A DNA stretch of 64,000 nucleotides from Gemmatimonadota bacterium (GTDB lineage: Bacteria > Gemmatimonadota > Gemmatimonadetes > Longimicrobiales > Gaopeijiaceae): positions 1 to 64,000 of the forward strand of contig JAPPGM010000107.1 in the NCBI GenBank assembly GCA_028874995.1. Reading direction: 5' to 3'. A program made the position numbers and the translations under genes. The notes beneath the pieces were generated by a model. The model made no database searches and was not told the origin of the DNA. It saw only the letters and a program-made list of their open reading frames with translations. Below are positions 7,061-63,609 of this stretch, in pieces; the stretch's first letter is position 1, and every line of letters begins with the position of its first letter.

Positions 7061-7276
7061 CGGCTGCGGGGGACCCTGCCGGGGGTGGATTCCAGCGTTG
7101 GATGAGGGGATGAACCCCAGATATTGTGGAGTGCGGCGGCCAGGAGTACACATTTTGCGGTTTTTTGGTAACTTCCTTCTGTGAGGTCGCCGACCGGCCG
7201 GGCGGGGGATTCGACGCTGTGAGACCCTTCCTGGGCGGGTCGGCAGCCTTCTTACCCCCAAGAACAGGAGCTAGCG

Positions 7277-13200: not shown

Positions 13201-13312
13201 GCGTTACTCGGTCACGCGGGTGCTCGACCTCCGCTTCGAGGGTACGCGAACCGAGCGCGCCGAAGGTCCGGCGCGGCACGGACTCGCCATGAGGGGGCGC
13301 TGGGTGTTCTGA
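7277..13312 (+). CDS. giant FN3-repeat surface protein with C-terminal autotransporter-like barrel
   Basis: 2011 aa. Start GTG 7277 with AGGAG at 7266-7270. An N-terminal signal peptide ends near GVRAE. About 45-260 is an Ig-like/cadherin-like adhesin region (SwmB/BapA style). About 262-1553 are 13 fibronectin type III domains, each with xPxxPTxLTATAxGxxxIDLxW and THYRVSAIN signatures. From about 1560 is a beta-rich region whose alternating strands and terminal Trp-Val-Phe fit an outer-membrane beta-barrel (autotransporter-like). I infer a surface-displayed adhesin carried by its own barrel. No separate secretion partner is adjacent. It is followed by a strong terminator at 13347-13398. Repeat-mediated recombination could change FN3 number. 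Confidence 0.85.
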   Translation: MRNLISFTVASLAVACLALLPGTGVRAEVVPGGDGGEAGGVVGEDKRVKPTVAIDTTRCAGCLSDGRPDSTFTLTFEFSVPSTGFTSGDIRITGAEKTGPLTTVQADSIFTLAVETHSGFEGNIIVTVVANAVDNDGDGNDATTFTFGVDNKPPELEQATANLQTIVLRYHEELDEQHQANATDFQVTTKRSDGTTGINNQNTRAVDVEDKVVTLTLAEADTIHAGDTVKLTYSLSSNQLRDENGNYLPAFSDQEVDNQRSLDPPGAVRNLTATGISTDTIKVDWDPPADIGGSAIIGYEVRGSNDGGNEYQVLQSGTGDDTDTATEYVHDGLQPGETWHYLVTAWNSTGAGPSRGVSGTTRREGQVPDAPTELTAEPDGNTAIDLDWDAPANTGTSAISGYRIESSTDGGSTWNDLVTNTGNTNTSYKHTGLQPNTTRHYRVYAINNTGQSAPSNVASATTTTVTSAPGAPTGLTATAQGTDRINLSWTAPSSDGNSAITGYKIEVSDDTGATWTDLVANTGNTNTTYPHTGLDPSTTRHYRVSAINAVGTGPVSNTAFATTDGAVPGRPTALRATAQGPDQINLEWSAPSDDGGSAITGYKIEVSANAGATWSDLVANTGSTSTTYPHTGLSAGDTRHYRVSAINAIGTGSPSREANATTHDVPGKPRNLTASPVGQTRIDLSWNAPNSNGGSSITGYRIDISSNGGVTWTVHVANSNSSATAYVHDNLTAGTTWHYRVFAINAIGTGSASNVAFTTTAASVPDAPNNLTATAAGRTRIDLEWDPPGFDGGSPITGYRIEVSDNAGDTWTNLVANTGRTTTRAADTGLDAGTTRHYRVRAINAVGAGDASNVDSATTAPDVPDAPQGLTATAAGMTQIDLSWSAPADDNGSAVSGYRIEVSRTGTSGWSVLETNTNSGDTEYSHTGLTPDTTLHYRVSAVNAVGHGAPSNVARATTDPRVPDAPTNLTATADGQSRINLVWSPPGYDGGSPVTGYRIEVSDDDEASWTILVANTNTVATSRVHRGLAPGSTRHYRVSAINVAGIGAASGVAHATTDATVPASPTDLAAVADGPFQIDLSWTAPNYDGGSPVTGYRIEVSTTRGVTWTTLEENTGTTATAFSHMDLPPATRRDYRVSAVNAVGAGLPSTPAHATTDPDLPDAPTDLTAAADGTSRIELEWMAPDYTGGVAITGYRIEVSEDGGSTWDELEADVPATPTRYTHMDLDPASTRHYRVSATNEAGTGEASNVADATTDATTPDAPTDLTATADGTSRIDLAWTAPDYDGGAEVMGYRIEVSVNRGATWTDLEADTESTSTTYAHTGLSPATTRHYRVSAINRVGAGDPSDEADATTDATVPDAPQRLTAAAHDHERIDLDWTAPNFDGGSAITGYRIEVSENAGSTWADLVANTGSTATEYSHTGLNPATTRHYRVSAINEIGTGEASNVADATTDAVVPDRPTNLEATATAPTRIDLTWSAPAYDGGARITSYRIEVSEDGISWSDLQRSTGTTLTSYAHVGVPPGSTRHYRVSAINIAGTGLPSNTASASTDDPVERAGRVNEAILPHFAAAATTSTMAAISGRIEAVASRNPLRSQLSAAGLLSRAGNMGQRGSAGGLDMARLFDGASFALPMGTGAQQQDNSTPFGFTTWGSAEYTSMGEPGGDEVEWEGDMLSIHIGADARVHRDILAGIAGSRSSGNYDFTDVTGAREVKGTYEARMTSLNPYAAWLPGRKGVSVWAAGSFGWGEVTVEDDPGGLRASDTRSRAGAVGGSRIMHSTGSSALRVRAEGWMSQVEVDGGEGMDTLTLDMQRLRLAVEWSQVRLLGGGQEVNFMVEGGLRYGDGDGTEGTGMELGGGLRFVSASRALTVEGHGRLLATSPNDYEEWGFRGLIQIEPQAVTRGLSLKITPAWGQSASGVQELYEQGVSNRYGMGDALQKGRVNTRVEYGLGEFGGTPYGRFYLADAGARAFGTGMRYSVTRVLDLRFEGTRTERAEGPARHGLAMRGRWVF
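8060..11935 (+). repeat. 13 tandem fibronectin III-coding repeats
   Basis: Thirteen successive units of about 98-100 codons (mean about 298 bp). Each starts with a Pro-Asp-Ala-Pro-Thr-like turn and ends in a SNVAxATT linker. Neighbouring units keep long near-identical DNA stretches around the HYRVSAIN codons, which suggests expansion by unequal recombination. Confidence 0.9.
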
Positions 13313-45253: not shown

Positions 45254-45267
45254 ATGTGTGTAGCCTC

Positions 45268-48200
45268 ATGACCCGCATCCCCCGCCCCGGCATGCTGGCC
45301 ACCGTCCGCAACCGCCGCGGCACGGTCACCTCCGTCGCCCCCTTCGACGGCGAGAACGGACGCGTTCACCTCGTCCACGTCGAATACCAGGACGGCGGAT
45401 CGCCCACTGCCGAGCGGCTTCTCTGGGAACTCGAACCCGACAGGACGCTGCTCGAACCCACCGCCCTCCCCGACCCCTACGACACCGACCCCATGCCCGC
45501 AGCCGATTTCGACGCCCTGCTGCGGGCGGCGCGCTGGACCGCCCTCTCCCCGTACCTGGGCCTCGACGGCGAGGGCCGCACGGAGGGCCGCCACCCCATC
45601 GCGAGTCCCTTCCACGGGGGCGTCCGCGTCGAGGACTTCCAGATCGTCCCCCTTTTGAAGGCCCTGCGGATGCCTCGCGTCAGCCTCCTGATCGCGGACG
45701 ACGTGGGCCTCGGCAAGACGATCGAAGCTGGACTCATCCTCACCGAGCTTCTGCTCCGGCGCCGCATCCGCCGTGTCCTCGTTCTGACGCCCGCCGCGCT
45801 TCGCGACCAGTGGAGGGAGGAGCTCTGGGAGAAGTTCTCGCTGCCATTCGAGGTGGTGGACCGCAAGGCGACCGAGAAGCTTCGTCGCAAGCTCGGGATC
45901 GACGCCAACCCGTGGCGCTCGTTCAGCCGGATCATCGCGTCGTACCACTACCTTCGCCAGCCGGACGTGCGGGAACAGTTCCTGTCCGCCTGCAGTACCC
46001 CGGAAGGCTCGCCCCATCTCCCGTGGGACCTGCTGATCGTGGACGAATGCCACAACCTCATGCCAGCGTCGTACGGCGAGGACAGCCAGCTCTGCCGGAC
46101 GCTCGGGCTCATCGCTCCGCGCTTCGAGCACCGCCTGTTCCTGTCGGCCACGCCCCACAACGGCCACACCCGTTCCTTCACCGGGCTGCTCGAAATGCTG
46201 GATCCGGTCCGGTTCACACGGACCAGCGAAATGGGCCGGGCGATGCGCCGACGCGTTGACGACCTGGTCATTCGGAGGCTGAAGCGCGACGTCAACGCGG
46301 GCGCCGCCGGGCCGAGATTCTGCTCGCGGAACCCCCCCCGGGCGCTGCGCTTGGCAAGCAATCCGCGCGAAGCGGAGCTCACGGCCGCCTTCGATGCCTT
46401 TCGTTCCTCCGTCGGGGGACTGATCGCCACCGGAACCCAGGGCGGACGCCGGGCCGGGACATTCGCCGTCGAGGTTCTCGGCAAGCGCCTCCTTTCCTGT
46501 CCGGCCGCGTTCGCCGACTCGTGGCACCGCACCATGCAGGGAATGGAGGAAGGCACGGCCTCGGACGCCGACGTGGGGGTGGCGGAACGGGTTCTCGGGC
46601 AGGAGACCGGCGACGACCGCGAGGCGCAGCAGCGGCAGGCCACCGCGGCCACTGTCGTCGGCGGCTGGCTGCGAAATTACCGCGACGACCTCACGCCGGA
46701 GATAGACCTGATCCAGGTCGCCGTCGAAGCCCTCGGTTTCGATCCCGCCGGACCGCCGCCGACGGAACAGGTGCCCGCCGCCGACGCCCGCTTCGACCAG
46801 TTGATCGCGCTCATCGAGAAGCTTCTGCGCCGCGACGGCCGATTCCGCGACGACGAACGGCTGATCGTGTTCACCGAGTACAAGACGACCCTCGACTACC
46901 TCGCCAACCGTCTGCGGATCCGGTATCCGGCCGACAGAATCCTGACGCTGTTCGGGGTGGGAGGTCCGGGCGGCATGGGCGCCACGGAGCGCGAGAGCGT
47001 CAAGGACGCCTTCAACGATCCCGGTGCCCGGGTCCGCATCCTGGTCGCCACCGACGCAGCTTCGGAAGGACTCAACCTGCACCGCACAGCCCGCTATCTC
47101 CTGCACTACGACTGCCCCTGGAACCCGTCGCGGCTGGAACAGCGCAACGGCCGCCTCGACCGCTACGGCCAGGCCCGCGACGTGACCGTCCACCACTTCG
47201 ACAGCACCGCCGATCCGGACATCCGCTTCCTGGACTACGTGATCCGCAAGGCCGACGGAATCCGCGAGGACCTGGGGTCCGCCAACGAGATCTTCGACCG
47301 TGCCGTCCGGCGCCGTTTGGTCGCGGGAGTGGATCGTGGTGTCGTCCAGAACGACTTGGACCTCGGGGTCGACAACGCGCGCGCCGACCGAATGACTGGT
47401 TTCGACACCACGATAGCGACCGGCAACGGGAAGGTTGGCGTCGGCGAGGCGGTCCGGGCGCTGGCCGACGCTATCGGGCTAAGTGCGCCGGTCATGGCGA
47501 AGACGCTCGAAGCCGCAATGGCCGTCTCGGGTCCGCGGCCGCAGCTCGATGACGCGGGTGAGCCCGATCTGTACAGGATCCGGCATCCCGAGCTTGCGGA
47601 GTGGAAGAGCGTGATCGACTCATCTGTTCGCCGACCCGCCGCAAGCGCGACAGGTGCGCTGGAGCCGGTCCGCAAGATTGCGTTCGGCCCCGCCCCGTTC
47701 ATTGAGCGGCTTGGAGATCTGGATGTGTTCAAGACGCGTCCCGACGCGCTGCTGATGCACCTGGCGCATCCGCTGATGAAGCGCGCCCTTGGTTTGCTCA
47801 CGCGCCTGCGCTATCCCGGCGAGGGCGCGAAGTCGCGGTGGACGGTGCGGATCGGCGGGGTTCCGCCGGGCGCCGAAGGCTTCATCCTGCTCAGTGTCGA
47901 AGAACTCGGGGTGAACGAGCTCAGGGAGAGCTTCCACCACTGGGTGCGGACCGTCGCGTTTCCGCTGCGCAACGGGCGAATCGGCCGTCCTCTCCCGCAT
48001 ACGTCATTTGCGGCACTTGGTGAGGGGCGAGGTACGACGAACCCGGCCGACTGGGACCGCGCCCGCGACCTGCTTTTGGACGCCGATCGCGGCCTGAAGC
48101 GCTGGCTGCGCGAGTATCAGGCCGGTCTCACAAGGGGGTTGCGAGACCAGTTGGGAACCGATGAGGCTGCGGACCGGAGGCGCGAGGACCAGCGCTACCG

Positions 48201-48552
48201 TCAGCGAGAGGGAGAAGTGTCAGCCCTGATCGAGCAGTCCACGGTGGGTCGGCTGAACCGCGAGATCGAGGCGCTCAAGGTCAAGCGGCAACAGGGCCAG
48301 CTCTTCGACGAGGCGGGCAGTCTCGACAAGCTGGACCGCTCCATCGAGGAGAAGGAATCGGAAATCGAGCGCCGCCGCGCGCACTACGACGAAATCCGCG
48401 AGCAGCTGAGGCGTGAACGAACCCGCATCCTGGATCACCTGCTTCCCGCCCGCTTCGCGCTTTCGGGCGAGGCAGGCGTGTTTCCGGTTACCATCGAGGT
48501 GAGGCTGCCCTTATCGCCGGCCCGCAGGGGGGCAAATGTACACTCCACATGA
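45268..48552 (+). CDS. drmD-like: DrmD-like SNF2/RapA-type helicase
   Basis: About 1094 aa from ATG 45268 (GTG 45256 or ATG 45292 are alternatives). Superfamily 2 motifs are clear: Walker A DDVGLGKT (Lys150), motif II VDECHN, motif III LSATPHNGH, motif V ATDAASEGLNLH, and motif VI QRNGRLDRYGQ. The N-terminal 60 residues form an SH3-like module and the C-terminus (about 980-1060) is coiled coil. The arrangement matches DrmD, the SNF2 helicase of class 1 DISARM, which precedes the methylase DrmMI; here too a methylase gene follows after 56 bases. drmA, drmB and drmC are absent from the window. The gene's last codons lie inside bipartite element copy C. Confidence 0.8.
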   Translation: MTRIPRPGMLATVRNRRGTVTSVAPFDGENGRVHLVHVEYQDGGSPTAERLLWELEPDRTLLEPTALPDPYDTDPMPAADFDALLRAARWTALSPYLGLDGEGRTEGRHPIASPFHGGVRVEDFQIVPLLKALRMPRVSLLIADDVGLGKTIEAGLILTELLLRRRIRRVLVLTPAALRDQWREELWEKFSLPFEVVDRKATEKLRRKLGIDANPWRSFSRIIASYHYLRQPDVREQFLSACSTPEGSPHLPWDLLIVDECHNLMPASYGEDSQLCRTLGLIAPRFEHRLFLSATPHNGHTRSFTGLLEMLDPVRFTRTSEMGRAMRRRVDDLVIRRLKRDVNAGAAGPRFCSRNPPRALRLASNPREAELTAAFDAFRSSVGGLIATGTQGGRRAGTFAVEVLGKRLLSCPAAFADSWHRTMQGMEEGTASDADVGVAERVLGQETGDDREAQQRQATAATVVGGWLRNYRDDLTPEIDLIQVAVEALGFDPAGPPPTEQVPAADARFDQLIALIEKLLRRDGRFRDDERLIVFTEYKTTLDYLANRLRIRYPADRILTLFGVGGPGGMGATERESVKDAFNDPGARVRILVATDAASEGLNLHRTARYLLHYDCPWNPSRLEQRNGRLDRYGQARDVTVHHFDSTADPDIRFLDYVIRKADGIREDLGSANEIFDRAVRRRLVAGVDRGVVQNDLDLGVDNARADRMTGFDTTIATGNGKVGVGEAVRALADAIGLSAPVMAKTLEAAMAVSGPRPQLDDAGEPDLYRIRHPELAEWKSVIDSSVRRPAASATGALEPVRKIAFGPAPFIERLGDLDVFKTRPDALLMHLAHPLMKRALGLLTRLRYPGEGAKSRWTVRIGGVPPGAEGFILLSVEELGVNELRESFHHWVRTVAFPLRNGRIGRPLPHTSFAALGEGRGTTNPADWDRARDLLLDADRGLKRWLREYQAGLTRGLRDQLGTDEAADRRREDQRYRQREGEVSALIEQSTVGRLNREIEALKVKRQQGQLFDEAGSLDKLDRSIEEKESEIERRRAHYDEIREQLRRERTRILDHLLPARFALSGEAGVFPVTIEVRLPLSPARRGANVHST

Positions 48553-48608: not shown

Positions 48609-51600
48609 ATGAGCACCAGGTCCGGAGCGTCCATCCCCGGCTGGAACCGGCTCCGCCACTCCGGCCTGCTTCTGGACGGCCCCCGGCTCGTTTCCTTGCG
48701 CGAGTACGTGGCGGAGCCGCTGGACGACCGGGTCGAGCAGAGGCTGAGGCAGCGTGCCGCCGCCGTCCTGTCCGGTGCGGTTGATGGGCCCGGGACCTCT
48801 GGCACGTCCGAATTCGTTTCGTTCGTCCTGGAGCAGGTTTGCGGATTCGATCCGGCGTCGGGCAGTTGGGAGCGCGGCGGCCGTGTCCCGTCCTCCCGCG
48901 GCAGGCGCGCCGTGACCGGCGAGATCGTGAAGCCGCGGCACCTGTGGAGCGGTCCGCGCGGAGCCTCGCTGCCCGTCTTCATCGACGACACCGCGCGCAT
49001 CGGAATCGGCCGCGGCCGGCGGGTCGTCAGCCGGGTGTTGGGATGGCTGCGGTCGGGAGGCGAGCACCTGGCGCTGGTCACCAACGGCCGCCAGTGGAGG
49101 CTGGTGTTCGCGGGTCTCGACTACGACGCCTCGTGCGAATGGGACGCCGACCTCTGGTTCGAGGAAGGCGAGCTGACGGCTCAGGTCACGGCCCTGCGGA
49201 CGCTTCTGTGCCCGAGACTCTGGACGCCGGAGGAAGAGGGAGCCGCTTCGCCGCTGCTCCAGGCCATTCGGGACACCCGGAAGGGGCAGGCGGAGCTGTC
49301 AGAAGTGCTTGGGGAGCGCGTGCGCGAGGCGGTGGAGATCCTCGTCAGGAGCCACGGCGAGGCGCTGAAGGAGCTCGCGGCGGGTGAAGACGGGGTGGCG
49401 CCGGCCGACATCTACCGCGCGGCCTGCCGGGTGGCGATGCGCGCGGTCGTCGTGCTCTTCGCGGAGTCGCGCGACCTGCTGCCCCGCGACAACACCGTGT
49501 ACGACGAGGGCTACGGCTTGAACGGGCTCTTCGGCCAGCTTGAGCGCATGGCGAACCGGGGCGACGCCATGAGCGAGTCCTTCGGGGCGTGGCCGCGCGT
49601 TCTGGCGCTCTTCCGGCTGGTGAACGAAGGCTCGCATCATCCCGACCTTCCGGTCGCCGCGTACGGCGGCGAGCTTTTCGCCACGGGGCGTTCCGACGCC
49701 GGGGACGGCGTCTCCCGCGCGCTGCATGTCTTCGAGACCGCGTGCTTCGGCGGCGGGCGGGTGCTCTCGGACCGCGACGTCTACCGGATGCTGCGACGGC
49801 TGACGCGTACCAAGGCGAGGATACGGCAGGGGCGCGGGGGGATGTGGGTGCCCGTTCCGGTGGACTTCTCCGACCTGTCTTCGGAGTACATCGGGGTGGT
49901 GTATGAGGGATTGCTGGACTACGAGTTGAAGACCGCGCCGGCGGGGGACCCGGTGGTGTTTCTCTCGGTTGGCGACCGTCCCGCGCTCCCCCTGTCCCGC
50001 TTGGAGGGGATGGACAGGCGGGCGCTTCGCGGACTTTTCGAGAAGCTGAAGAAGGAGAGTGTGGCGGACGAAGGACGGGGCGATGAGGAGGGCCGCGACG
50101 AGGGGTCGGAGGTGGAGGACGAGTCTGGCGAAACGGCGGCGGAGTCCGCCGAGGACGCCGCGTTGGACGAGCGCCGGACCTATCGGACGCGGGCGGAACA
50201 GTGGGCGCGCCGTGCCGTGGAGGTCGCGGGGCTCGCCAGGAAACCGCGGGGCCGGATGACGCCGGAGCGGCGGCTGGCCTACGAGGGCAAGCTCGCCGCA
50301 ACGGCCCGAAGGCTGGTGCACCAACAGGTTCTTCCGGGTGAATGGTACCTGGCGCGCTGGGGCGGGACTCGAAAGGGTTCCGGGAGTTTCTATACCCGGC
50401 CGGGGCTGGCCGTGCCGACCGTGCAGCGGACGCTCCGCCCGCTCGCGTACGATCCGCCCAGGGGCAAGTCGCGGACCGAGGCGCTGCTGGCCCCGTCTTC
50501 CAAATGGACGCCCAAGCGGCCCGAAGAGATCCTCGCTCTCAAGGTCTGCGACCCCGCCTGCGGGTCCGGCTCCTTTGTTCTGGCGGCGCTACGGTTCCTG
50601 ACAGACGCGCTGTACGAGTCCCTACAGCGCCACGGGCGGATCGAGGCCAAGGCGAACGAGTCGCTCGTGTGGCTGCTCGGCATGCGCGGCGGGGAGGCGG
50701 GTGACGATGAGCGATTGAGCGACGAGCAGATCCCTTGCCGCCCGGAGGACGACGAATTCGAGCGGCTTCTGAAGGCCCGCCTGCGCCGGCACGTCGTCGA
50801 GCGCTGCATCTACGCGGTCGACCTGGATCCGCTGGCGGTCGAGCTCTGCCGTCTCTCGCTCTGGATCGAGACGATGGATCGCGAGCTCCCGTTCGGGTTC
50901 CTGGACCACAAGGTCAAGTGTGGCAACGCGCTGGTCGGTGCCTGGTTCGACCAGTTCCAGCACTATCCGGCGATGGCGTGGAAGAACCGTGAGGGGGGCG
51001 ACAGGAACCACTCGAACGGGGTGCACTACGGCAAGAACGCGCGGGGCAGAGCGATCAAGGCCTTCCACAAGGACGTGTTGACGCCTGACATGAAGCGGTT
51101 CCTCGAAGGCAGGACGCTGTTTCAGGAGGACCTGCTGGAGAAGGCGGCCGGGGCGCACGGGGATGCGATGGGGGTGCTGGCCTACATGCACGAGCTGCCG
51201 GTGCAGGATGCGGCGGAGCGGGCGGAGGTTTATCGGACGGAGTTGTTGGGGTCGAGCGAGTGGAGGTCGCTGAAGGAGGCGATGGACCTGTGGTGCGCGT
51301 GCTGGTTCTGGCCGGCGGACGAGATCGGGTGTGCGTCGTTGCCGACGAGTTTTGCGGATCCGCCGGAGAGGACTCGGGTGGTGGGGAGGGCGGTGGCCGC
51401 GCGGCACCGGTTCTTTCATTGGGAGCTGGAGTTTCCAGATGTGTTTGATGGGGAAGGGGCGGGGTTCGATGGGGTGGTGGGGAATCCGCCGTGGGAGAAC
51501 CTCCAACCTAATCCGGAGGAGTTCTTCTCGAATGAGGACCCGTTGTTCCGCACCTATGGCCGGTTGGTCAAGCGCGGGCGACAACAAGAGATGTTCCAGG

Positions 51601-53999
51601 CGGACATGTCGATCGAGAGACGCTGGCTGGATTACGTCGCCGGTTTCAAGGGTCTCTCCAACTGGGTGCGGCACTGCGCCAATCCGTTCGGTGACCCTGA
51701 AGCTCAAGTGCGAAGTCAAGGCTCGTTTCCCCTCGGTCGGGGCGGCAAGGCGCTCCACCGGCGTTGGAGAGAGGCACGACAGGCAGATCATGGCTTTTCG
51801 GATCCTGATCACGCGTTCCGGCTTCAAATGGGACGGATATTCACGTATCCGCTCTTTCTGGAGCAATCTCTCGCGCTATTGAGAACGGGTGGAAGATGCG
51901 GGCTCATCATTCCGTCTGGGATCTACAGCGATGCTTGGACTCGTCCGCTCCGAATCACACTTCTCGAGCGCTGTCGGTGGGAATGGCTGTTCGGAATCGA
52001 GAACAGCGGGAAGATCTTCCCGATCCACCGCAGCTACAAGTTCAACCCCGTCATCGCCGAGAAGGGTGGGTCGACCGAGGCAATCCAGACGGCCTTCATG
52101 CGCGGCAGCCTTGAGGACTGGGAGCGCGCCGAGGATCTCGCCACACCCTACGCGCGCGATCAGGTGGAGCGGTTCAGTCCGAAGAGCCGCGCGATTCTCG
52201 AGATCCAGTCCGGGCGCGATCTGGAGCTCCTGGAGAAGATATACACCGACTCCGTGCTGCTCGGCGACGATGGGCCCGATGGGTGGGGCATTAAGTACAA
52301 GCTCGAATTCATGATGAACACGGACGCCAAGCTCTTCCCGCCCCGCCCAACGTGGGAAGCGAAGGGCTACCGTCCCGACGAGTACAGCCGCTGGCTGAAG
52401 GGGGACTGGCGTCCGATCGGGGAGCTGTGGGCGGAGTTGGGGGTGGATCCGGGGCGGCCGGAGCCTGTGGAGGTCGAGCTGGTGGACTGGCTGTTCGATG
52501 GGAGTGCCGGGCCCGAGAGGCGGGAGGCGGAGGCTCGGTTCGTGCATGGGCACCTGCTCAAGCCTGGCGATGTGGCGCGGACGGACTGGGCGGTGCGGTG
52601 CGCGCAGCCGCCGTATGACCGGCTGCCAGTGCCGCGGGTGGCGATTCCGGCGGGGATCATTCTGTCGCGGGATGGGACGGAGTGGATATGGGAGGGGGCT
52701 GGGGTGGAGGATGTGGCGTTGCCGTTGTATCAGGGAACCATGGTGCAGCCGTTCGTGCCCAGCGCACGAGGGTGGCTGAGCGGCACTGGGCTGCAGGCGA
52801 AATGGGACTATAGCTCCTTGGAGGACCTCCGATGGAATCCGCAGTTCCTAATGGAGCACGACGTGGCTGACCAGAGAATTGGCTCTTGGCCCTACGCCAA
52901 GATTGGTTACCGCGAAGTGGCCCGCAGCACGGATCCTCGGTCGTTCATTGGTGCGATGCTTCCGCCCTTTCCTTGCGGCCACAAAGTGCCGGTCCTGCAT
53001 GCCAACGTCCGCAATGGAGTTCCCGGTGCTGCGGCATGCCTGAACAGCTTTGTTTTCGATTGGCTTGTACGGCAGCGCCTCGGTGGAGCAGCCTTGGCGT
53101 GGCACGTCCTTGCTGAGACTGCACTACCACCGATTCAGGAATGGCCTGGGATAGTCCGCGTCGTCAATGCGCTGAACCTGCGTTTCCGCGTCTTTTCTCC
53201 CGCTCGTTTGGTTCACGACGATGCGGGTGCCGGGGCACTTGCCGGAGCCGAGAGGATCCGTTTGCGCGCGATCGTGGATGCGGTGTCGTGTGCGATGTAC
53301 GGATGTGACATGAATGACTTGCTTTACATTCTTCGGGACTGCGACCGGCGGACCGATGACGTCCGGGCACGCTCCCATCAGATCGCCGGCTTGGACATGA
53401 GGGGGTTCTGGCGGGTCGACCGGGACCAGGAGCCGGAGTTGCGCCTTACCATTCTCACACTCATGGCATTTCACGATCTCGAATCGAAGGGCGGCACGTC
53501 CGGCCGCTACCGAGACATCCAAGCGTTCTTCAGACAGAATCACGGCGAGGGTTGGCTCCTGCCCGAGACCGTCCGCCTCACGGACTACGGATTGGGTCAC
53601 GACGACCGGGCCGGACGTCACCAGCCTGTCGCCCGCCGATTGGGGCCGCGCTTCTACGACTGGCAACTCGCCCAGAGCTCTGACGAATCGTGGCGGGAGT
53701 GCCACCTTCACGCCCGAAACCTCCTAGGCCCCGACGAGTACGCCCGGCTCCTCAACCGCCTGATCGAGCACCGAGTCCGATCCGGCGACCAACACGACGA
53801 TCTCCTCTTCGGCCAGTTCACACGCGATCTGGTCGGGGAAGACACGGAACTCCCAACCCCCACGACTGATGGGATCGCCTTCGGTGACGAGAGGGCACTG
53901 CGGGCCGCCGAACCGAAGCCCGACTACTCCGCCGACCCTTCCGGGAAGCGGCCTCAGACCGAGATGTTTCGGGGTCCTCAATCCGACCTGTTCGAATAG
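48609..53999 (+). CDS. large Eco57I/DrmMI-like DNA adenine methylase
   Basis: 1796 aa. The N-terminal 300 residues resemble the fold of type IIG/ISP enzymes (LRSGGEHLALVTNGRQWRLV), but I see no clear D...ExK nuclease core. A low-complexity acidic linker lies at about 480-520. SAM motif I, CDPACGSGSFVLAALR, is near residue 650, and the N6-adenine motif IV, GNPPWEN, has Asn959. The C-terminal third probably contains the target recognition region. As in DISARM or BREX it would mark self DNA, paired with the upstream helicase. At nearly 1.8 kb of codons it is larger than most DrmMI proteins I know. No frame break seen. Confidence 0.8.
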   Translation: MSTRSGASIPGWNRLRHSGLLLDGPRLVSLREYVAEPLDDRVEQRLRQRAAAVLSGAVDGPGTSGTSEFVSFVLEQVCGFDPASGSWERGGRVPSSRGRRAVTGEIVKPRHLWSGPRGASLPVFIDDTARIGIGRGRRVVSRVLGWLRSGGEHLALVTNGRQWRLVFAGLDYDASCEWDADLWFEEGELTAQVTALRTLLCPRLWTPEEEGAASPLLQAIRDTRKGQAELSEVLGERVREAVEILVRSHGEALKELAAGEDGVAPADIYRAACRVAMRAVVVLFAESRDLLPRDNTVYDEGYGLNGLFGQLERMANRGDAMSESFGAWPRVLALFRLVNEGSHHPDLPVAAYGGELFATGRSDAGDGVSRALHVFETACFGGGRVLSDRDVYRMLRRLTRTKARIRQGRGGMWVPVPVDFSDLSSEYIGVVYEGLLDYELKTAPAGDPVVFLSVGDRPALPLSRLEGMDRRALRGLFEKLKKESVADEGRGDEEGRDEGSEVEDESGETAAESAEDAALDERRTYRTRAEQWARRAVEVAGLARKPRGRMTPERRLAYEGKLAATARRLVHQQVLPGEWYLARWGGTRKGSGSFYTRPGLAVPTVQRTLRPLAYDPPRGKSRTEALLAPSSKWTPKRPEEILALKVCDPACGSGSFVLAALRFLTDALYESLQRHGRIEAKANESLVWLLGMRGGEAGDDERLSDEQIPCRPEDDEFERLLKARLRRHVVERCIYAVDLDPLAVELCRLSLWIETMDRELPFGFLDHKVKCGNALVGAWFDQFQHYPAMAWKNREGGDRNHSNGVHYGKNARGRAIKAFHKDVLTPDMKRFLEGRTLFQEDLLEKAAGAHGDAMGVLAYMHELPVQDAAERAEVYRTELLGSSEWRSLKEAMDLWCACWFWPADEIGCASLPTSFADPPERTRVVGRAVAARHRFFHWELEFPDVFDGEGAGFDGVVGNPPWENLQPNPEEFFSNEDPLFRTYGRLVKRGRQQEMFQADMSIERRWLDYVAGFKGLSNWVRHCANPFGDPEAQVRSQGSFPLGRGGKALHRRWREARQADHGFSDPDHAFRLQMGRIFTYPLFLEQSLALLRTGGRCGLIIPSGIYSDAWTRPLRITLLERCRWEWLFGIENSGKIFPIHRSYKFNPVIAEKGGSTEAIQTAFMRGSLEDWERAEDLATPYARDQVERFSPKSRAILEIQSGRDLELLEKIYTDSVLLGDDGPDGWGIKYKLEFMMNTDAKLFPPRPTWEAKGYRPDEYSRWLKGDWRPIGELWAELGVDPGRPEPVEVELVDWLFDGSAGPERREAEARFVHGHLLKPGDVARTDWAVRCAQPPYDRLPVPRVAIPAGIILSRDGTEWIWEGAGVEDVALPLYQGTMVQPFVPSARGWLSGTGLQAKWDYSSLEDLRWNPQFLMEHDVADQRIGSWPYAKIGYREVARSTDPRSFIGAMLPPFPCGHKVPVLHANVRNGVPGAAACLNSFVFDWLVRQRLGGAALAWHVLAETALPPIQEWPGIVRVVNALNLRFRVFSPARLVHDDAGAGALAGAERIRLRAIVDAVSCAMYGCDMNDLLYILRDCDRRTDDVRARSHQIAGLDMRGFWRVDRDQEPELRLTILTLMAFHDLESKGGTSGRYRDIQAFFRQNHGEGWLLPETVRLTDYGLGHDDRAGRHQPVARRLGPRFYDWQLAQSSDESWRECHLHARNLLGPDEYARLLNRLIEHRVRSGDQHDDLLFGQFTRDLVGEDTELPTPTTDGIAFGDERALRAAEPKPDYSADPSGKRPQTEMFRGPQSDLFE

Positions 54000-54008
54000 G
54001 AGCACGCC

Positions 54009-54558
54009 ATGTTCGACGCGACCGACCAGATCCTTCGCCAGCTCCGGGCCGGTGAGGACATCCGGACGGAGTTCAAGGAACTGCGCTACGGCAAGCGTGG
54101 CGTGATCTCGCCCAGAACGGAAAACCTCGCGGCCGAGATGGTCGCGTTCGCCAACGCGGAGGGCGGGACGTGCATCTTCGGCGTTGACGACTCCGGCGCG
54201 CCCGCAGGAGTGTCGAGGGACAGGCTGGATGCCGTCGAACAGTCGATCATCAACGTGGCTTCGGATCTGTGCGATCCCCCGATCCGTCCCCTGTTGAGGC
54301 GAGCCGTCGTTCCCGGCGCCGATGGTGAAGTCACCGTTGTTATGGCCGACCTATACCTGGGCACTGGCGACGCGGTGGAGCAGATGGCGGCTCTGGCTGC
54401 AGCTCGAGAGAGCGTCGGCGGCGCTGGCGCGGGCGGAGTGGGGGACGGTGGGCCATCGGGTGGGCCAATGCCGAGCGATAACCCGCAGGATCCCGATGGA
54501 ACTCGGCCGGAGATGGTGGACGAGCTGTGAGCGGGACAGGGCGATATGGGGGTCATAG
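54009..54558 (+). pseudogene. AlbA_2/Schlafen-type gene, truncated and probably frameshifted
   Basis: The first 110 residues are a good AlbA_2 (Schlafen-like) domain: QILRQLRAGEDIRTEFKEL, NLAAEMVAFANAEGGTCIFG and VDDSGAPAGV. After about 54360 the frame turns Gly-rich and stops at 54530. In another frame the end (HRVGQCRAITRRIPMEL) weakly resembles the family's usual continuation, suggesting a frameshift; this part is uncertain. Full members have 400-550 residues, so the gene is truncated in any case. It begins 9 bases after the methylase stop and is followed by the DUF262 gene. A second broken member lies at 58074. Confidence 0.65.
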
Positions 54559-54652
54559 ATAGCCCGTGAGCAGGCTTGCCCGATCCCTCCGAGACGAGCA
54601 TCTTACGGCCCGATTTCCCAGTAGCACGAAGGCTTCAAGGACCATTCCAAGA

Positions 54653-55972
54653 ATGAGCACTAACGACGACAATCGGCCCACTCCGCGCTTCCCAAACCAG
54701 GTTTCGTTTGACTCGCCTGCAGTCCGGGAGGTGCGAGCTCCAGCGTTTTCCGGCTCGCTGCAATCGGACGAGTCGGATCCAACGGTGGCGAGTAACGATC
54801 CCCAAGAGCCTCCCGAAGCGCTGCCAGACATGGCGGACATCGGTGCAGCGCTCGCGGAGGAGGGAGAGACTGCTGGCGAGGGGGTCGAAAGGGAGGAGCT
54901 TGACGCCGAAGACGGTGCCCGAATCGCCGAGCCCTTCGATCCAACCAAGATCAGGATCACGACGAGGCAACCGTCCGTGGATCTGGTCATCGAGAGAATC
55001 CGAGAAGACGAGATTGATCTGCAGCCCGACTTCCAGAGGGCGGGAAACATCTGGTCCCGAGCCACCAAGAGCCGCCTGATCGAATCTCTTCTCCTTCGGA
55101 TCCCCCTCCCGGTGTTCTACATGGCCGCGAATGCGGACGACAACTGGCAGGTGGTGGACGGGCTACAGAGGCTCGGTGCGTTGCGGGAATTCGTTCTCGA
55201 AAAGAAGCTGCGTCTTCGGGGACTGGAGTACCTCAGCCAGTTCGAGACTCGGTCCTACGACGACCTGCCCCGCCCGATGCAACGCCGCATCAATGAGACG
55301 CAGCTGTCATGCCACATCATCGAACCGGGTACGCCGCCGGAGGTCATGTACAACGTCTTCAAGCGAATCAACACCGAAGGCAAACCGCTCAAAGGTCAGG
55401 AGATTCGGCATGCTCTCAATCCGGGTCCAGCGCGCGATCTGCTCGGCGAACTGGCCTGCTCCGTCGAGTTCCTTCGGGCTACGGACCGCAGCGTCAGCCC
55501 GAAGCGGATGGCCGACCGGGAGTGCGTTCTTCGTTTCCTGGCGTTCCGCTCCCTGGGCGTGGATTCGTACGAGGGGAAGCTCGACGATTTCCTTCTTAGG
55601 GCGATGAGGGCGCTGAACGAAGACGAGAGCCGACATCGTGTGCTCGCCGATGACTTTCGCCGTTCCATGTCAATGGCGTCCGACATCTTTGGGCGGGAAG
55701 CGTTTCGCAAACCGCGCCGACCCGGCTTCGGCAAGTGGCGGAGTCCCGTCAACAAGCCGCTGTTCGAGTGTCTTTCCGTCGAGCTGGCCGACATTGGTGG
55801 GGGCAGGTCGGATTTCCTGCTGAGCCGGAAGGACGAGGTCATGAGCGGCTTGAACGGGCTGATGGGGGACGCGGAGTTCATCGAGAGTATCTCCGTCGGC
55901 ACGCAGACGACCAGAATGGTTGGCATACGCTTTGGCCGCATCAGGGCACTCGTTCGGGGGTTGGCGTCATGA
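54653..55972 (+). CDS. DUF262 (ParB/Srx-like) protein
   Basis: 439 aa from ATG 54653 (AAGGA 11 bases upstream; an in-frame GTG at 54566 is an alternative). A poorly ordered acidic N-terminus is followed by the DUF262 core: QPDFQRAGNIWSRATKSRLI, VVDGLQRLGALREFV (the DGxQR motif) and VFKRINTEGKPLKGQEIRHA. DUF262 is the nucleotide-hydrolysing ParB/Srx-like domain of GmrSD-type modification-dependent systems, normally with a DUF1524 HNH domain in the same or next gene. Neither is present here. Its stop overlaps the next gene's ATG (ATGA). Confidence 0.8.
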   Translation: MSTNDDNRPTPRFPNQVSFDSPAVREVRAPAFSGSLQSDESDPTVASNDPQEPPEALPDMADIGAALAEEGETAGEGVEREELDAEDGARIAEPFDPTKIRITTRQPSVDLVIERIREDEIDLQPDFQRAGNIWSRATKSRLIESLLLRIPLPVFYMAANADDNWQVVDGLQRLGALREFVLEKKLRLRGLEYLSQFETRSYDDLPRPMQRRINETQLSCHIIEPGTPPEVMYNVFKRINTEGKPLKGQEIRHALNPGPARDLLGELACSVEFLRATDRSVSPKRMADRECVLRFLAFRSLGVDSYEGKLDDFLLRAMRALNEDESRHRVLADDFRRSMSMASDIFGREAFRKPRRPGFGKWRSPVNKPLFECLSVELADIGGGRSDFLLSRKDEVMSGLNGLMGDAEFIESISVGTQTTRMVGIRFGRIRALVRGLAS

Positions 55973-57072
55973 TAGACCACTTGGAACTCAGGAACTTCAA
56001 GTGCTTCCGAGAGCAGACGATTCCATTCCGGGGACTGACCATCCTCGCTGGGTTGAACGGCTCGGGAAAGAGCAGCGTCATTCAGGCTATACTTGCACTG
56101 CGTCAGGCATTGGGTGCGGAGCGGGGCACGCCGTGGCAGGGATCCCTCGTGAACCTCGGCTCCTACCGTGATGTTATCCACGAAGACGCCAGCGACGACA
56201 CAGTCGGGCTGAAGGTATCGTTCGGCGGGGAAGCGCAGGCGCGTTTTGAGATGCGGCAGCAGGGTGAAGCTGGGGAAGCCTGGTGTGGCCCGGAAGCAGA
56301 GAAGCAGCTCCGCGGATACCTGTTCTACGTGTCGGCTGATCGCCTCGGACCGCGGGCGACGCTGCCGTTTGCCGGGGATGGACAACGTAGCTCCTTAGCC
56401 CCTCTCGGCAAGAGGGGCGAACATGTGTTGTGGTACCTCCACAACTTTGGTGGCGCACCCGTCATGGCGGCCGTCCGCCATCCGGGGGAATCGAAGAACA
56501 CCCTCGTGGCCCAGGCGACGGCTTGGCTTGGGGCCATCAGCCCAGGTGCCGACCCCATGATCGCGGTGGTTCCAGAGGCGGACTGTGCGGTCGTGACCTA
56601 TCGCTTCTCGAGATCTGGAGATGTGCCCAGCAGGCCGTTCCGGGCCAGCAACGTCGGATTCGGAGTGAGCTACGCGTTTCCACCGATCGTCGCGCTCCTT
56701 GCTCCAAAACGTGACCGGACCAGTTCGGTCGAGCATCTGGTCATCATCGAGAATCCCGAAGCCCATCTCCATCCGGGTGGCCAGACATCGTTGGCGGAGC
56801 TTGCCGCCAGAGCGACTGCCAGCGGTTCGCAAGTTGTCTTGGAAACACACAGCGACCACGTTCTTGACGGGGTGCGGCTTGCGGTTCGCGAAGGCATATT
56901 GTCTCCGGAGGAGGTCGCCATCCACTACTTCGAGCGATACGGCCTTGACGTGCGGGTGACGACTCCGGTGGTTAGCCGGACGGGACGGCTTGACATCTGG
57001 CCCGAGGGGTTTTTCGACCAGCACGAGCGCAACCTGTCCCGGCTCATGGGCCTCCCGAACACGACAGGTTGA
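55969..57072 (+). CDS. AAA/ABC-type ATPase (DUF3696-like)
   Basis: 367 aa. It is a compact SMC/OLD-like ATPase: MIDHLELRNFKCFREQTIPF, Walker A AGLNGSGKS (Lys34), Walker B LVIIENPEAHLHPGG, and H-loop LETHSDH. This is the arrangement of ATPases in Septu-, Gabija- and retron-like defence systems and in DUF262 neighbourhoods. It overlaps the DUF262 gene by four bases, and its own stop overlaps the next start (TTGA). Confidence 0.85.
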   Translation: MIDHLELRNFKCFREQTIPFRGLTILAGLNGSGKSSVIQAILALRQALGAERGTPWQGSLVNLGSYRDVIHEDASDDTVGLKVSFGGEAQARFEMRQQGEAGEAWCGPEAEKQLRGYLFYVSADRLGPRATLPFAGDGQRSSLAPLGKRGEHVLWYLHNFGGAPVMAAVRHPGESKNTLVAQATAWLGAISPGADPMIAVVPEADCAVVTYRFSRSGDVPSRPFRASNVGFGVSYAFPPIVALLAPKRDRTSSVEHLVIIENPEAHLHPGGQTSLAELAARATASGSQVVLETHSDHVLDGVRLAVREGILSPEEVAIHYFERYGLDVRVTTPVVSRTGRLDIWPEGFFDQHERNLSRLMGLPNTTG

Positions 57073-58058
57073 ATTCCCCCGTGTCGGCACGGCAACCCAG
57101 CATCACCTGGTTCGTCTTCAACGAGCTGTCTGCGCGCGTTCCGGCCGAAACCGTCCACGAGGGCCAGATGCGCTTCGACGATCTTGTGGATGCGGTTGCG
57201 ATCGTCATGAATGGTCGTCCGGCGGAGCTGGTCTCCACCGGCGAACGCGTCCTCTGGGATGCGGAACTCGCCACTGGCTACACGGTGGGTCACTGGTTCA
57301 CATCAGCAGACCGGGATCGGAAGATGTTGCTTCTCCGCATCGCAGCGAAGACCGGTTTTCCCGATGAGGTCGGCGAGGCTCTGAGAGAACGTTTCTACCT
57401 GTCGGAGTTCTTCGTCGAAGATGTCGCATTCGAGGACCGCCCCGATGCGCGCGGACTTGGGGCGGCCTACTTGCTTGACGGCATTGCGGTGAGCCTGCCA
57501 TCGGAGCAACGGTGGAGAGTGACGGCGGTACCGCTTCACCACGTGTGGTTGGATGCGAGAGGTGTCGAGAAGGGACGAAATGTCGAGGTGCTCAACCTGT
57601 TCAACCGCAGCCAAGCGAAGCATGTCCGTGACACCATCCTTGAAAAAGCGCAAGGCAACTTGTGGGGCGAGCCCGCCGCGCTGAGGTCGAGAAAGGCAGA
57701 GTATTTTCCCCATCTCCGCTTCGGCCTCGATGTTGACAACCACATTGCGCAACTGCCAACCGGCATCGTCGCGGCGGTAGTAAAAAAGTTGATGGCGCTG
57801 GACCACGCCTGCCGGACTTGGCGAGGGGACGCGCGGATCAAGTTTCCGACCCTGCCGGGTTGTCGCCCGGAGAGCGAGCCGACCATGCAACAGTACGGGA
57901 CTCATCGCGTTTTTCGCGACCCAGAAGGGATGAACAGGGCCTACGAAATACATTGTGCAGCTGCGTCCTACCGAATCCATCTGCGTGTCGTGCACGATCC
58001 GCGTGGCTTGGAGATCGGGTATATCGGGAAGCATTTGCCTACTAAGAAATACCCCTGA
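57069..58058 (+). CDS. unrecognised 329-aa protein in the DUF262-ATPase cassette
   Basis: Start TTG 57069 overlaps the ATPase stop (TTGA); GTG 57081 is an alternative. I recognise no family. Visible features: an N-terminal beta-strand with FNELSARVPAETVHEG; a central region of charged helices; GIVAAVVKKLMALDHACRTW; and a beta-rich C-terminus (AYEIHCAAASYRIHLRVVHD, then IGYIGKHLPTKKY) that superficially resembles small RelE-like toxins. Position as third gene of a DUF262-ATPase operon suggests it is the effector; that is inference. Confidence 0.6.
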   Translation: MNSPVSARQPSITWFVFNELSARVPAETVHEGQMRFDDLVDAVAIVMNGRPAELVSTGERVLWDAELATGYTVGHWFTSADRDRKMLLLRIAAKTGFPDEVGEALRERFYLSEFFVEDVAFEDRPDARGLGAAYLLDGIAVSLPSEQRWRVTAVPLHHVWLDARGVEKGRNVEVLNLFNRSQAKHVRDTILEKAQGNLWGEPAALRSRKAEYFPHLRFGLDVDNHIAQLPTGIVAAVVKKLMALDHACRTWRGDARIKFPTLPGCRPESEPTMQQYGTHRVFRDPEGMNRAYEIHCAAASYRIHLRVVHDPRGLEIGYIGKHLPTKKYP

Positions 58059-58073
58059 AGCTACTGCACTGCA

Positions 58074-58507
58074 GTGTTCGCCACCCCCAACGAAATCCAC
58101 CAACAGCTCCGCAGCGAGGACAGCCGCGCGGAGTTCACGCGGGTAGTTATCCGGGGCCGGCGGGTTCTGCGACCGGACCGGGACCGGCTCGAAGATCGGT
58201 CTCCTCCTGTACTCGGATCGGCTGGAGCTGTACGGCCCGGGCAGGCCGCCCAAACGGGATCACGATCGACCAGATGCCGTACTGCACGTTCGCCCGTAAC
58301 CAGCTCTTAATCAGCTTCCTCTCAAAGATGCGCAGCAAGCGAACGACGGGGCGGTGGTCCAAGGAGTCGCGGGGGGAGGGGGTGCGGAAGATCCTCGAGG
58401 GCGGGGAGGCGCACTCGGGGCGGCGGCCGGAGTACGAGCTGTTCGGGAACGAGTTGCGGTTGACGGTGTGGTGGAGAGGGACGCCCCGTGATGTCGCGAC
58501 ATGGTAA
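58074..58507 (+). pseudogene. second decayed AlbA_2/Schlafen-type gene
   Basis: Three frames carry consecutive pieces of this family. Frame from 58074: FATPNEIHQQLRSEDSRAEF, an N-terminus like that of the gene at 54009. Frame through 58201: LLLYSDRLELYGPGRP. Frame from about 58252: GITIDQMPYCTFARNQLLIS, then SFLSKMRSKR, ESRGEGVRKILEGG and RRPEYELFGNELRLTVW, the characteristic C-terminus. Most of the middle (about 300 residues) is deleted. One of the shifts is an extra A in the AAA at about 58251-58253, since removing it yields PNGITIDQMPY. It is clearly inactive. Confidence 0.7.
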
Positions 58508-61848: not shown

Positions 61849-63609
61849 CTACACCCCCGCAGCCGGATCAAACACCATCCCCAGCAGCGTCCCCGCGGGA
61901 TCCCCATCGGTCAGCCTCAACCGAACGTGCTCATCGAACGCGAATCCGTCGCGGAAGTCGTCGTAGGGCACCATATCCGAGTTGAGCGCGCAGATGTACT
62001 GCGTCCCAGTCGCCTCCGCGACCTCGCGGGCCCGCTGGATCGCCGCCGCCCGTTGCCGCGAGTCGACACCATCGAACATCTCGCTGTCGTGCACCAGGAA
62101 GTCGATCCCGAGCCCGCGGCGCGTGGAGAATTCGAGGAGCGCGAGGTCGAGGCAGAAGATCTTCATCTTGCCGATGCCGTCGCTGCCGCTCTTGCTGATT
62201 TCGATGTTGAACTTCAGGCCGGAGTCCGTCGTGTCGATCACGAGGCGCCCAGGGGCCCGGTACAGCGCCTGCGAGTTGAGGTTGAACAGCCTCACCGGAG
62301 CGTTCCAGAGATCGCGGCGCTCGTCGTGGTCGCGCGCGGCCAGATCGGCCAACTCCGCCCTTTCGCGTGCGACCCGGCGCTCATCGGATTCCATCTGGCG
62401 TCTGCGCTCGATCTGGTCCTTGACTCGCTCCAGCTCCCGGCACCTGGTGACATGCCGCTCCTGCAACTTCACCATCTCCTCGAGAGCGCCGTGCGTGGAC
62501 AGGATCTCCAGGAGCCCGGCCCTGCTCTCGGTCAGCTCCCGAATCCTTCGATCGGCCTCGGAGATCCGGCTTTCCAGGCGAGCGATCTCCTTCTGCAGAA
62601 AGCGTCGCCGATCCCGGACGACCAGGCCGTAGAACTCCCTCGCCTCCGCAAGCGAGCGGCGCACCTGTTGTGAGAACACCACGCCCATCTCCTCGTACAC
62701 GTCCTCGAAGGAATCCGCTGAAGGCGCCTCCTCGGACTCGACGGCCTGCCTGTAGAGGCTTAATCGACGAGAGGCGACGACGTTTTCGTTCGCCTCCCGG
62801 TGCAGCTGTTCGGTCAACTGATCCGCTTCGCGACGAATGGACTCGTACTCGGGATGCACCCTGAAGCTGTCGAGCGCACGGGAGCTCTCCTCGATCTCCT
62901 GCGCAAGGGTGACCCGTTCGGCTTCGAGCTTTCCGACGCTGCCGCCAAGGTGCGGCACGGCATCTCGGTCGACCAGCTTCCGCAAGGTCTTCAGATCCTT
63001 GTCCCTGTCCTTGATGGCCTGCCACTGCGCGGCGTGGCGCCATTCCAACCCCAGCAGCAGCGCCATGTGCAGCTGCATGTCCCAAGCTGGCTGGCGTCGG
63101 AAATGCGTAAACGGATCACCGAAGGCGTCGTGGCCCCGGCGGACGAAGTAGGAGATCAGGCTTCGGAACGACGGGTTGTACTTTGGAGCGCCCGGCGACG
63201 GCAGCGAGAACAGCGCCCTCCCGAGGAACGCCCGCCACTGCGCCTGGGTGAACGAGCGCACTTCCATCAGGTCCGCGGAAGGCAGGTCCCGCCACTCGTC
63301 GCTCAGCCCTTTGACCACGACGGTGTTCGGCGACGCGACCGCGCGGGTTACCGCGAAGCGCTCACCGCGGAGCGACATCTCCATCGTGAACACCCAATCC
63401 TCCAGGGCGGGAATCGCGAGACCCCTGTCGCGACGGACCCTAGCGCCGAGGCAGAAGTGGATGATCTCGACCAGCGTGGACTTGCCCAGTCCGTTGCGCG
63501 TGTCCTTGCGGGAGGATTCCTCCGTGCGGTCCGCGAGGATGACGTTCAGCCCAGGCGTGAACTCGACCCCGCGGAACGACGGCTGGTTGGCGGCGACCGA
63601 GTGGATCAT
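61849..63609 (-). CDS. DUF2326 ATPase of an ABC-three-component system
   Basis: 586 aa, ATG 63609 overlapping the preceding stop (ATGA). The P-loop is TRNGLGKSTLV (Lys43). A long coiled-coil middle (about 220-420, Rad50/RecN-like) is followed by a C-terminal half with IGKMKIFCLDLALLE (signature-like) and DFLVHDSEMFDGVD (Walker B-like Asp-Ser-Glu). DUF2326 proteins are the ATPase of ABC-3C conflict systems, thought to sense invading nucleic acid and trigger partner effectors. Intact and of usual length. Confidence 0.85.
   Translation of the reverse strand: MIHSVAANQPSFRGVEFTPGLNVILADRTEESSRKDTRNGLGKSTLVEIIHFCLGARVRRDRGLAIPALEDWVFTMEMSLRGERFAVTRAVASPNTVVVKGLSDEWRDLPSADLMEVRSFTQAQWRAFLGRALFSLPSPGAPKYNPSFRSLISYFVRRGHDAFGDPFTHFRRQPAWDMQLHMALLLGLEWRHAAQWQAIKDRDKDLKTLRKLVDRDAVPHLGGSVGKLEAERVTLAQEIEESSRALDSFRVHPEYESIRREADQLTEQLHREANENVVASRRLSLYRQAVESEEAPSADSFEDVYEEMGVVFSQQVRRSLAEAREFYGLVVRDRRRFLQKEIARLESRISEADRRIRELTESRAGLLEILSTHGALEEMVKLQERHVTRCRELERVKDQIERRRQMESDERRVARERAELADLAARDHDERRDLWNAPVRLFNLNSQALYRAPGRLVIDTTDSGLKFNIEISKSGSDGIGKMKIFCLDLALLEFSTRRGLGIDFLVHDSEMFDGVDSRQRAAAIQRAREVAEATGTQYICALNSDMVPYDDFRDGFAFDEHVRLRLTDGDPAGTLLGMVFDPAAGV

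What the first reader, a model, noticed from the sequence alone, without database searches (positions are those of the whole stretch)
54009..58507. DUF262-ATPase-unknown cassette between two broken AlbA_2 genes
Seen: related AlbA_2/Schlafen-type remnants on both sides of a compact three-gene block whose junctions overlap by 1-4 bases. The left remnant keeps the N-terminal domain; the right one keeps the C-terminus plus a short related N-terminus. Inference: the cassette either inserted into one of two tandem AlbA_2 genes, or sits at a site used repeatedly for defence gene turnover.
Basis: partly seen in the sequence, partly recalled or inferred. Interest (0 to 1): 0.75.

Follow-up and report, generated by a model that had tools for sequence, protein, structure and literature searches.

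The report
Menshen defence operon in turnover slot
The three genes are a complete copy of a known bacterial anti-phage system (Menshen), parked among the debris of older defence genes at a spot inside a larger defence operon where related bacteria carry different defence genes; the broken genes on either side are two separate relics, not one gene cut in half.

Summary
In detail: AlbA_2 (Schlafen-type) remnants flank a compact three-gene operon. The operon is Menshen (NsnA DUF262, NsnB ATPase, NsnC). All three genes look intact, and most of 80 relatives across phyla keep the same order, usually without AlbA_2 nearby. The "unknown" NsnC folds, in its C-terminal part, like RelE/YoeB ribonuclease toxins with conserved E/H/R; the literature describes the same architecture as "ptuXYZ". 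"Insertion into one AlbA_2 gene" is not supported: both remnants keep the same N-terminus and are different genes, the right one is broken by its own ~780-bp internal deletion, the cassette lies outside both, a third gene's 3' remnant separates it from the left one, and no target duplication was found. "Site of defence-gene turnover" is supported: a congener is collinear on both sides (91% and 95%) but carries other genes in the slot. The slot lies between a DrmD helicase-IIG methylase pair and a DruE-like helicase; probes for the methylase and DruE-like gene hit the same 4 of 395 genomes, each with different slot cargo (DarTG, antitoxin-like, AlbA_2+NACHT, Menshen+Tiamat+PDC-M68). Known system, new instance; the nested slot is the more interesting part.

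The parts
45256..48552 (+). DrmD-like SNF2 helicase, left edge of the core operon
   Evidence: padloc PDLC02621 DrmD 614 bits
48609..53999 (+). type IIG / DrmMI-like DNA methylase (1796 aa), second gene of the core
   Evidence: padloc PDLC03622 REase_MTase_IIG 1244 bits, DrmMI 420 bits; Pfam Eco57I
54009..54360 (+). left AlbA_2 (Schlafen-type) gene, 5' third only; truncated
   Evidence: PF04326; 68.6% DNA identity to G014 AlbA_2 gene over 54000-54315
54385..54624 (+). debris: 3' end and downstream flank of a paralogue of the 1382-aa HTH gene at contig 64864-69012, with an internal deletion
   Evidence: self-BLAST 54412-54509, 54508-54537, 54563-54624 vs 68635-68736, 68990-69019, 69021-69081 at 73-90%; start at 54385 judged by eye from translated frames
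54653..55972 (+). NsnA (DUF262/GmrSD_N NTPase-like), Menshen; likely ATG start (the GTG at 54566 lies in debris)
   Evidence: padloc NsnA 435 bits; PF03235
55969..57072 (+). NsnB, OLD/PtuA-like ABC ATPase with DUF3696, Menshen
   Evidence: padloc NsnB 327 bits; Walker A GLNGSGKSS and ENPEAHLH conserved in alignment A2
57069..58058 (+). NsnC, Menshen; C-terminal 110 aa RelE/YoeB-like fold
   Evidence: padloc NsnC 185 bits; AF2 pLDDT 92.7 and 96.5; fold matches
58066..58507 (+). right AlbA_2 gene remnant: start plus ~37 codons joined out of frame to the C-terminus by an internal deletion of about 780 bp, plus a further frameshift
   Evidence: 58066-58186 and 58178-58255 match G014 11575-11694 and 12477-12554 at 82%; PF13749
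58519..61836 (-). TmtA (Tiamat), neighbouring cargo of the slot
   Evidence: padloc TmtA 574 bits
61849..63732 (-). PDC-M68B (DUF2326), neighbouring cargo
   Evidence: padloc PDC-M68B 678 bits
63830..64000 (-). part of PDC-M68A HNH gene (63830-64606 on the contig), neighbouring cargo
   Evidence: padloc PDC-M68A 241 bits

Best explanation
54653-58058 is an intact Menshen (NsnABC) operon occupying a cargo slot inside a DrmD-methylase-[slot]-DruE-like core operon. The flanking AlbA_2 pieces are two independent relics of earlier Schlafen-type cargo genes, and debris of a third gene lies between the left relic and NsnA. The slot changes content by recombination between conserved flanks and loses genes by deletion; the broken AlbA_2 genes are by-products and not a target site. 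Inferred mechanism of Menshen: NsnA (DUF262 NTPase) and NsnB (OLD/PtuA-like ATPase) sense infection and hold or release NsnC, whose RelE/YoeB-like domain cleaves RNA and stops translation in the infected cell. Shown: gene content, order, intactness, flanking collinearity, deletion, fold. Inferred: sensing, RNA cleavage, the exchange mechanism, and whether Menshen was gained here or lost in the congener.
For: padloc NsnA/B/C 435/327/185 bits, near full length. Contiguous NsnA-B-C in most of 80 loci from many phyla, with AlbA_2 within 9 kb in only 3. Congener G014 collinear left (91% to 52729) and right (95.6% from 64843, 94% to the contig end) with different genes between and no Nsn match. G014 AlbA_2 matches both remnants and exposes the internal deletion on the right. 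Third-gene debris on the left. No direct repeat at the tight junctions, no tRNA. Core co-occurrence: methylase and DruE-like probes hit the same 4 of 395 genomes. Slot cargo differs: DarTG in G377, NTase/HTH in G148, NACHT/NYN/AlbA_2 in G014, PIN in a Synechocystis plasmid. NsnC C-terminal domain: Foldseek prob 1.00 to RelE, all 50 VIA rows RelE/ParE superfamily, Z up to 8.2; H295 and R302 invariant in 41 sequences, E268 in 40. Same architecture independently described as ptuXYZ (PMC11980606).
Against: Only one close relative (G014) allows an allelic comparison, and its own methylase and AlbA_2 gene are broken, so the direction of change is open. Profile-profile comparison of NsnC with ParE/RelE sequences gives nothing, so the RNase call rests on fold plus conserved residues. 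In the one other Menshen locus of the genus (G033) a truncated AlbA_2-type gene also abuts NsnA, a coincidence not fully explained. Cargo on the minus strand makes co-transcription across the whole slot unlikely.
Confidence: 0.82

Rival explanations
1. Menshen inserted into one AlbA_2 gene and split it; the two flanking pieces are its halves.
For: Left piece has the N-terminal domain, right piece the C-terminus.
Against: Both pieces carry residues 1-35, only 40% identical there; 69% and 82% identity to the same congener gene; third-gene debris between left piece and cassette; the cassette lies upstream of the right gene's start; no target duplication.
Confidence: 0.03
2. AlbA_2/Schlafen genes are functional partners of Menshen and tend to sit next to it; the pieces here are decayed accessory genes of Menshen.
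For: Right AlbA_2 starts 15 bp after NsnC as an operon partner would; a full AlbA_2 gene lies 59 bp after NsnC in Neptuniibacter L110; in G033 an AlbA_2-type remnant abuts NsnA.
Against: Only 3 of 80 Menshen loci have AlbA_2 within 9 kb, about 2 per Mb, close to the own-genome density of 7 in 4.5 Mb; G014 has the AlbA_2 without Menshen.
Confidence: 0.1
3. The left 173-aa ORF is still a functional short Schlafen-domain protein read as the third gene of the helicase-methylase operon.
For: It starts 9 bp after the methylase stop and keeps an open frame.
Against: It ends before the AlbA_2 domain is complete (profile 1-83 of 118) and continues into out-of-context debris of another gene; G377 and G148 have no AlbA_2 gene after the methylase.
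Confidence: 0.08
4. Assembly artefact: remnants and cassette were joined from different strains.
For: Draft genome of 191 contigs.
Against: Contig collinear with G014 on both sides of the slot, including the same right-edge gene. The ~780-bp deletion cannot be a base-calling error, though single-base frameshifts could be.
Confidence: 0.04

Closest known systems
Menshen (NsnABC), PADLOC models; described in PMC10952713 citing Millman et al. 2022
   Same: Three genes in the same order, DUF262 protein + ATPase + NsnC; near full-length matches to all three padloc models
   Different: Nothing essential. No OLD TOPRIM domain (PF20469) was reported by Pfam in NsnB; DUF3696 was found instead
ptuXYZ (Gerdes 2025, PMC11980606)
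   Same: DUF262 protein, PtuA-like ATPase, two-domain protein with C-terminal YoeB-like BECR fold: matches NsnA, NsnB, NsnC as found here
   Different: The paper does not mention Menshen; its sequences could not be compared here, so identity of the two systems is an inference
Schlafen-type RNase genes with minimal histidine kinase and wHTH linked to BREX/BR loci (PMC12839542)
   Same: AlbA_2 N-terminus plus HATPase_c_4-like C-terminus next to methylase/helicase defence loci
   Different: Both copies here are broken
DISARM and Druantia
   Same: Core helicase and methylase resemble DrmD and DrmMI; the right-edge helicase resembles DruE
   Different: The combination DrmD + IIG methylase + DruE-like was not matched to a complete DISARM or to a named Druantia type, as far as tested

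Membership tests
Menshen (NsnABC) | Three adjacent co-oriented genes nsnA-nsnB-nsnC | tested here: met
   54653-58058, 4-bp overlaps; same order in most of 80 relatives
Menshen (NsnABC) | NsnA with DUF262/GmrSD_N domain without DUF1524 | tested here: met
   PF03235 66 bits and no other Pfam hit; padloc NsnA 435 bits
Menshen (NsnABC) | NsnB ATPase with intact Walker motifs | tested here: met
   AAA_15 84 bits, padloc NsnB 327 bits, motifs conserved
Menshen (NsnABC) | NsnC homologue | tested here: met
   padloc NsnC 185 and 162 bits
Menshen (NsnABC) | OLD-type TOPRIM domain reported for one component (PMC10952713) | tested here: inconclusive
   PF20469 not reported at E<=1; a missed HMM hit does not exclude it
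Menshen (NsnABC) | Anti-phage activity | not testable with these tools
   needs phage challenge
RelE/YoeB (BECR) ribonuclease fold, for NsnC C-terminus | RelE-type fold | tested here: met
   domain-only model pLDDT 96.5; Foldseek prob 1.00; all 50 VIA rows RelE/ParE superfamily, Z up to 8.2, about 80 of 85 residues aligned
RelE/YoeB (BECR) ribonuclease fold, for NsnC C-terminus | Sequence-profile similarity to ParE/RelE families | tested here: inconclusive
   hhalign probability below 1%, no Pfam hit to these families in 41 members; the fold match remains
RelE/YoeB (BECR) ribonuclease fold, for NsnC C-terminus | Conserved catalytic-type residues | tested here: inconclusive
   E268 40/41, H295 41/41, R302 41/41, H/K322 41/41; match to YoeB E46/R65/H83 is from memory and by eye
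SLFN_AlbA_2 gene (both remnants) | Complete AlbA_2 domain plus C-terminal HATPase/wHTH part | tested here: not met
   left has only profile 1-83/118; right lacks the domain core
DISARM (core operon) | drmA, drmB, drmC together with drmD/drmMI | tested here: inconclusive
   DrmD and DrmMI-like present; the large helicase matches DruE (344 bits) far better than DrmA (50 bits); the rest of the genome was not scanned for drmB/drmC
Druantia (core operon) | druE plus type-specific partners | tested here: inconclusive
   DruE-like protein present; no protein tested in the locus matched a named partner, but not every ORF was scanned

The most novel reading that the evidence does not exclude
DrmD + IIG methylase + DruE-like helicase form one undescribed defence core that keeps an internal cargo slot, in which whole defence or toxin-antitoxin modules (DarTG, PIN, Schlafen, NACHT, Menshen, Tiamat, PDC-M68) are exchanged while the core flanks stay put: a nested acquisition site inside a defence operon.
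Probability: 0.4. Interest if true: 0.5.

Novelty: new member of a known kind. Interest (0 to 1): 0.36.

Why it matters
It shows that an apparent 'cassette in a broken gene' is a known mobile defence operon among debris, gives a two-sided allelic comparison of a defence slot in a little-studied lineage (nearest named relatives: Longimicrobiales and Ca. Palauibacter), links the Menshen third gene to a RelE/YoeB-like domain so that its mechanism can be tested, and suggests that Menshen and ptuXYZ are one system under two names. If the nested slot holds up, it gives a compact place to look for further small defence modules.

Tried and rejected
Single-gene split by insertion: rejected (overlapping N-termini, internal deletion, third-gene debris). 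Target-site duplication and inverted repeats at the junctions: no 6-bp direct repeat at the tight junctions; 8-bp matches in the wider flanks at chance level. tRNA-targeted island: no tRNA in the window or to the contig end. Menshen as phage or plasmid cargo: no NsnC match in plasmids, phages or viral contigs. AlbA_2 as a Menshen partner: 3 of 80 loci (an earlier HMM used wrongly oriented seeds and was redone). Sequence-level homology of NsnC to RelE/ParE: no support; the first hhalign used wrongly oriented sequences. Weak matches of the NsnC N-terminal part to other folds (Z below 4): not used; PMC11980606 reports a PIN-like fold there. MTase phylum search with the full protein failed twice and was replaced by a 400-aa probe. 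[quoted passage not shown]

Full report
What is there. The window carries, left to right on the + strand, a DrmD-like helicase (45256-48552), a 1796-aa IIG/DrmMI-like methylase (48609-53999), an AlbA_2 fragment (54009-~54360), gene debris (~54385-54624), three overlapping genes (54653-58058), an AlbA_2 remnant (58066-58507), and on the minus strand TmtA (Tiamat) and the PDC-M68 pair. On the contig beyond the window follow a 1382-aa HTH protein (64864-69012) and a ~2000-aa DruE-like helicase with DEAD, Helicase_C, MZB and S24 domains (ATG near 70718, to 76687).

The cassette. PADLOC models identify the three genes as NsnA, NsnB and NsnC at 435, 327 and 185 bits, almost full length; this is Menshen, for which PMC10952713 states a DUF262 protein and reports that its mutation or deletion abolished resistance. 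Both junctions are 4-bp overlaps, ATGA and TTGA. A scan of about 85,000 species genomes with an NsnB alignment gave 80 kept loci in Nitrospira, Gammaproteobacteria, Cyanobacteria, Lachnospiraceae, Streptomyces and others, most with nsnA-nsnB-nsnC contiguous. AlbA_2 genes lie within 9 kb in only three of them. So the module is autonomous.

The 'unknown' gene. NsnC was modelled from 41 homologues at pLDDT 92.7. Its C-terminal ~110 residues match RelE, YoeB, HigB, YafQ and ParE toxins: Foldseek probability 1.00 for the best hits, and with the domain modelled alone (pLDDT 96.5) all 50 VIA-align rows are of this superfamily, Z up to 8.2 over about 80 residues. Sequence profiles do not see it. E268, H295, R302 and H/K322 are (nearly) invariant, in places that by eye fit the YoeB-type pattern (from memory). 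Gerdes 2025 (PMC11980606) describes 'ptuXYZ', a DUF262 protein, a PtuA-like ATPase and a PIN-like plus YoeB-like two-domain protein, without mentioning Menshen. The architecture is the same; I infer that ptuXYZ and NsnABC are one system. The fold call is therefore not new, though it is an independent confirmation.

The remnants. Congener G014 has one AlbA_2 gene in the same slot, itself damaged. It matches the left piece at 69% (54000-54315) and the right piece at 82% in two parts, 58066-58186 and 58178-58255, which correspond to G014 positions 783 bp apart. The right gene thus lost its middle by an internal deletion, out of frame, with 3 to 9 bp of similarity at the joint, and has another frameshift further on. 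The left and right pieces both contain residues 1-35 and are only 40% identical there. They are two genes. Between the left piece and NsnA lie about 240 bp that match, at 73-90%, the 3' end and downstream flank of the 1382-aa HTH gene found some 14 kb further on, again with an internal deletion. The first codons of the longest NsnA ORF (GTG 54566) fall in this debris, so ATG 54653 is the likelier start. No direct repeat was found at the cassette ends, and there is no tRNA; no transposase was noticed among the listed ORFs.

The slot. G014 is collinear with the window contig at 91% up to 52729, inside the methylase, and again from 64843 to the contig end at 94-96%. Between these points the two genomes share little. 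G014 has a NACHT-pentapeptide gene, a NYN gene and the AlbA_2 gene, plus a 60-bp trace of PDC-M68B. In G377 the gap between methylase and DruE-like gene holds DarT-DarG with overlapping frames. In G148 it holds a nucleotidyltransferase-like gene (by eye, no Pfam hit) and an HTH antitoxin-like gene. A Synechocystis plasmid has the same core, fragmented, with a PIN-domain gene before the helicase. Probes for the methylase core and for the DruE-like N-terminus hit the same four of 395 genomes of the phylum, which by chance would be of the order of one in a billion for independent genes, although two of the four are congeners. I therefore read DrmD-methylase-[slot]-DruE-like as a core with an internal cargo site. 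Embedded effectors within BREX and BREX-related core loci, Schlafen RNases among them, are a known theme (PMC12839542).

Mechanism, with steps marked. Shown: gene content, intactness of nsnABC, decay of both AlbA_2 genes, different slot content between congeners. Inferred: NsnA/NsnB act as nucleotide-driven sensor and gate; NsnC's RelE/YoeB-like domain is the toxic RNase; slot exchange is by homologous recombination through the conserved flanks with later deletions. Whether Menshen arrived in this lineage or was lost from G014 cannot be told; its nearest homologues are only about 52-72% identical, and its GC (0.60-0.62) is below that of most of the flanking genes (0.63-0.68), which leans to arrival.

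Verdict. The cassette is a known system in a new place. The nested slot is worth a survey; the broken AlbA_2 genes are debris.

Noticed in passing
window 52729-53999 vs G014 (L017/L018): Methylase identity drops from 91% to about 71% or less in the last 1.3 kb; the C-terminal part looks exchanged between congeners, perhaps a target-recognition swap.
   Followed up: no
L013 (G033) 8793-11541, minus strand: The only other Menshen found in the genus is decayed: NsnA lacks its N-terminus, NsnB is fused to NsnC by an internal deletion, and a truncated AlbA_2-type gene with a wHTH abuts NsnA. Broken AlbA_2-type genes beside Menshen twice in one genus is unexplained.
   Followed up: partly
L012 (G036) 3198-13297: Menshen lies directly downstream of HmaB and HmaC (Hma system) with a gap of about 35 bp.
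   Followed up: no
L011 2865-7013 (contig 64864-69012): 1382-aa protein with an N-terminal HTH and no other strong family match, in a block 95.6% conserved in the congener; paralogue debris at window 54385-54624.
   Followed up: partly
G014 rc 15752-15811 vs window 62031-62090: 60 bp at 92% of PDC-M68B survive in the congener, so PDC-M68 was probably once in its slot too.
   Followed up: no
L125 2458-13225 (IMG/VR contig): A DrmD-methylase pair (methylase 56% identical) sits beside a serine-recombinase-like gene on a contig classed as viral.
   Followed up: no
L110 10104-12627: In Neptuniibacter a full-length AlbA_2 gene follows nsnC by 59 bp.
   Followed up: no
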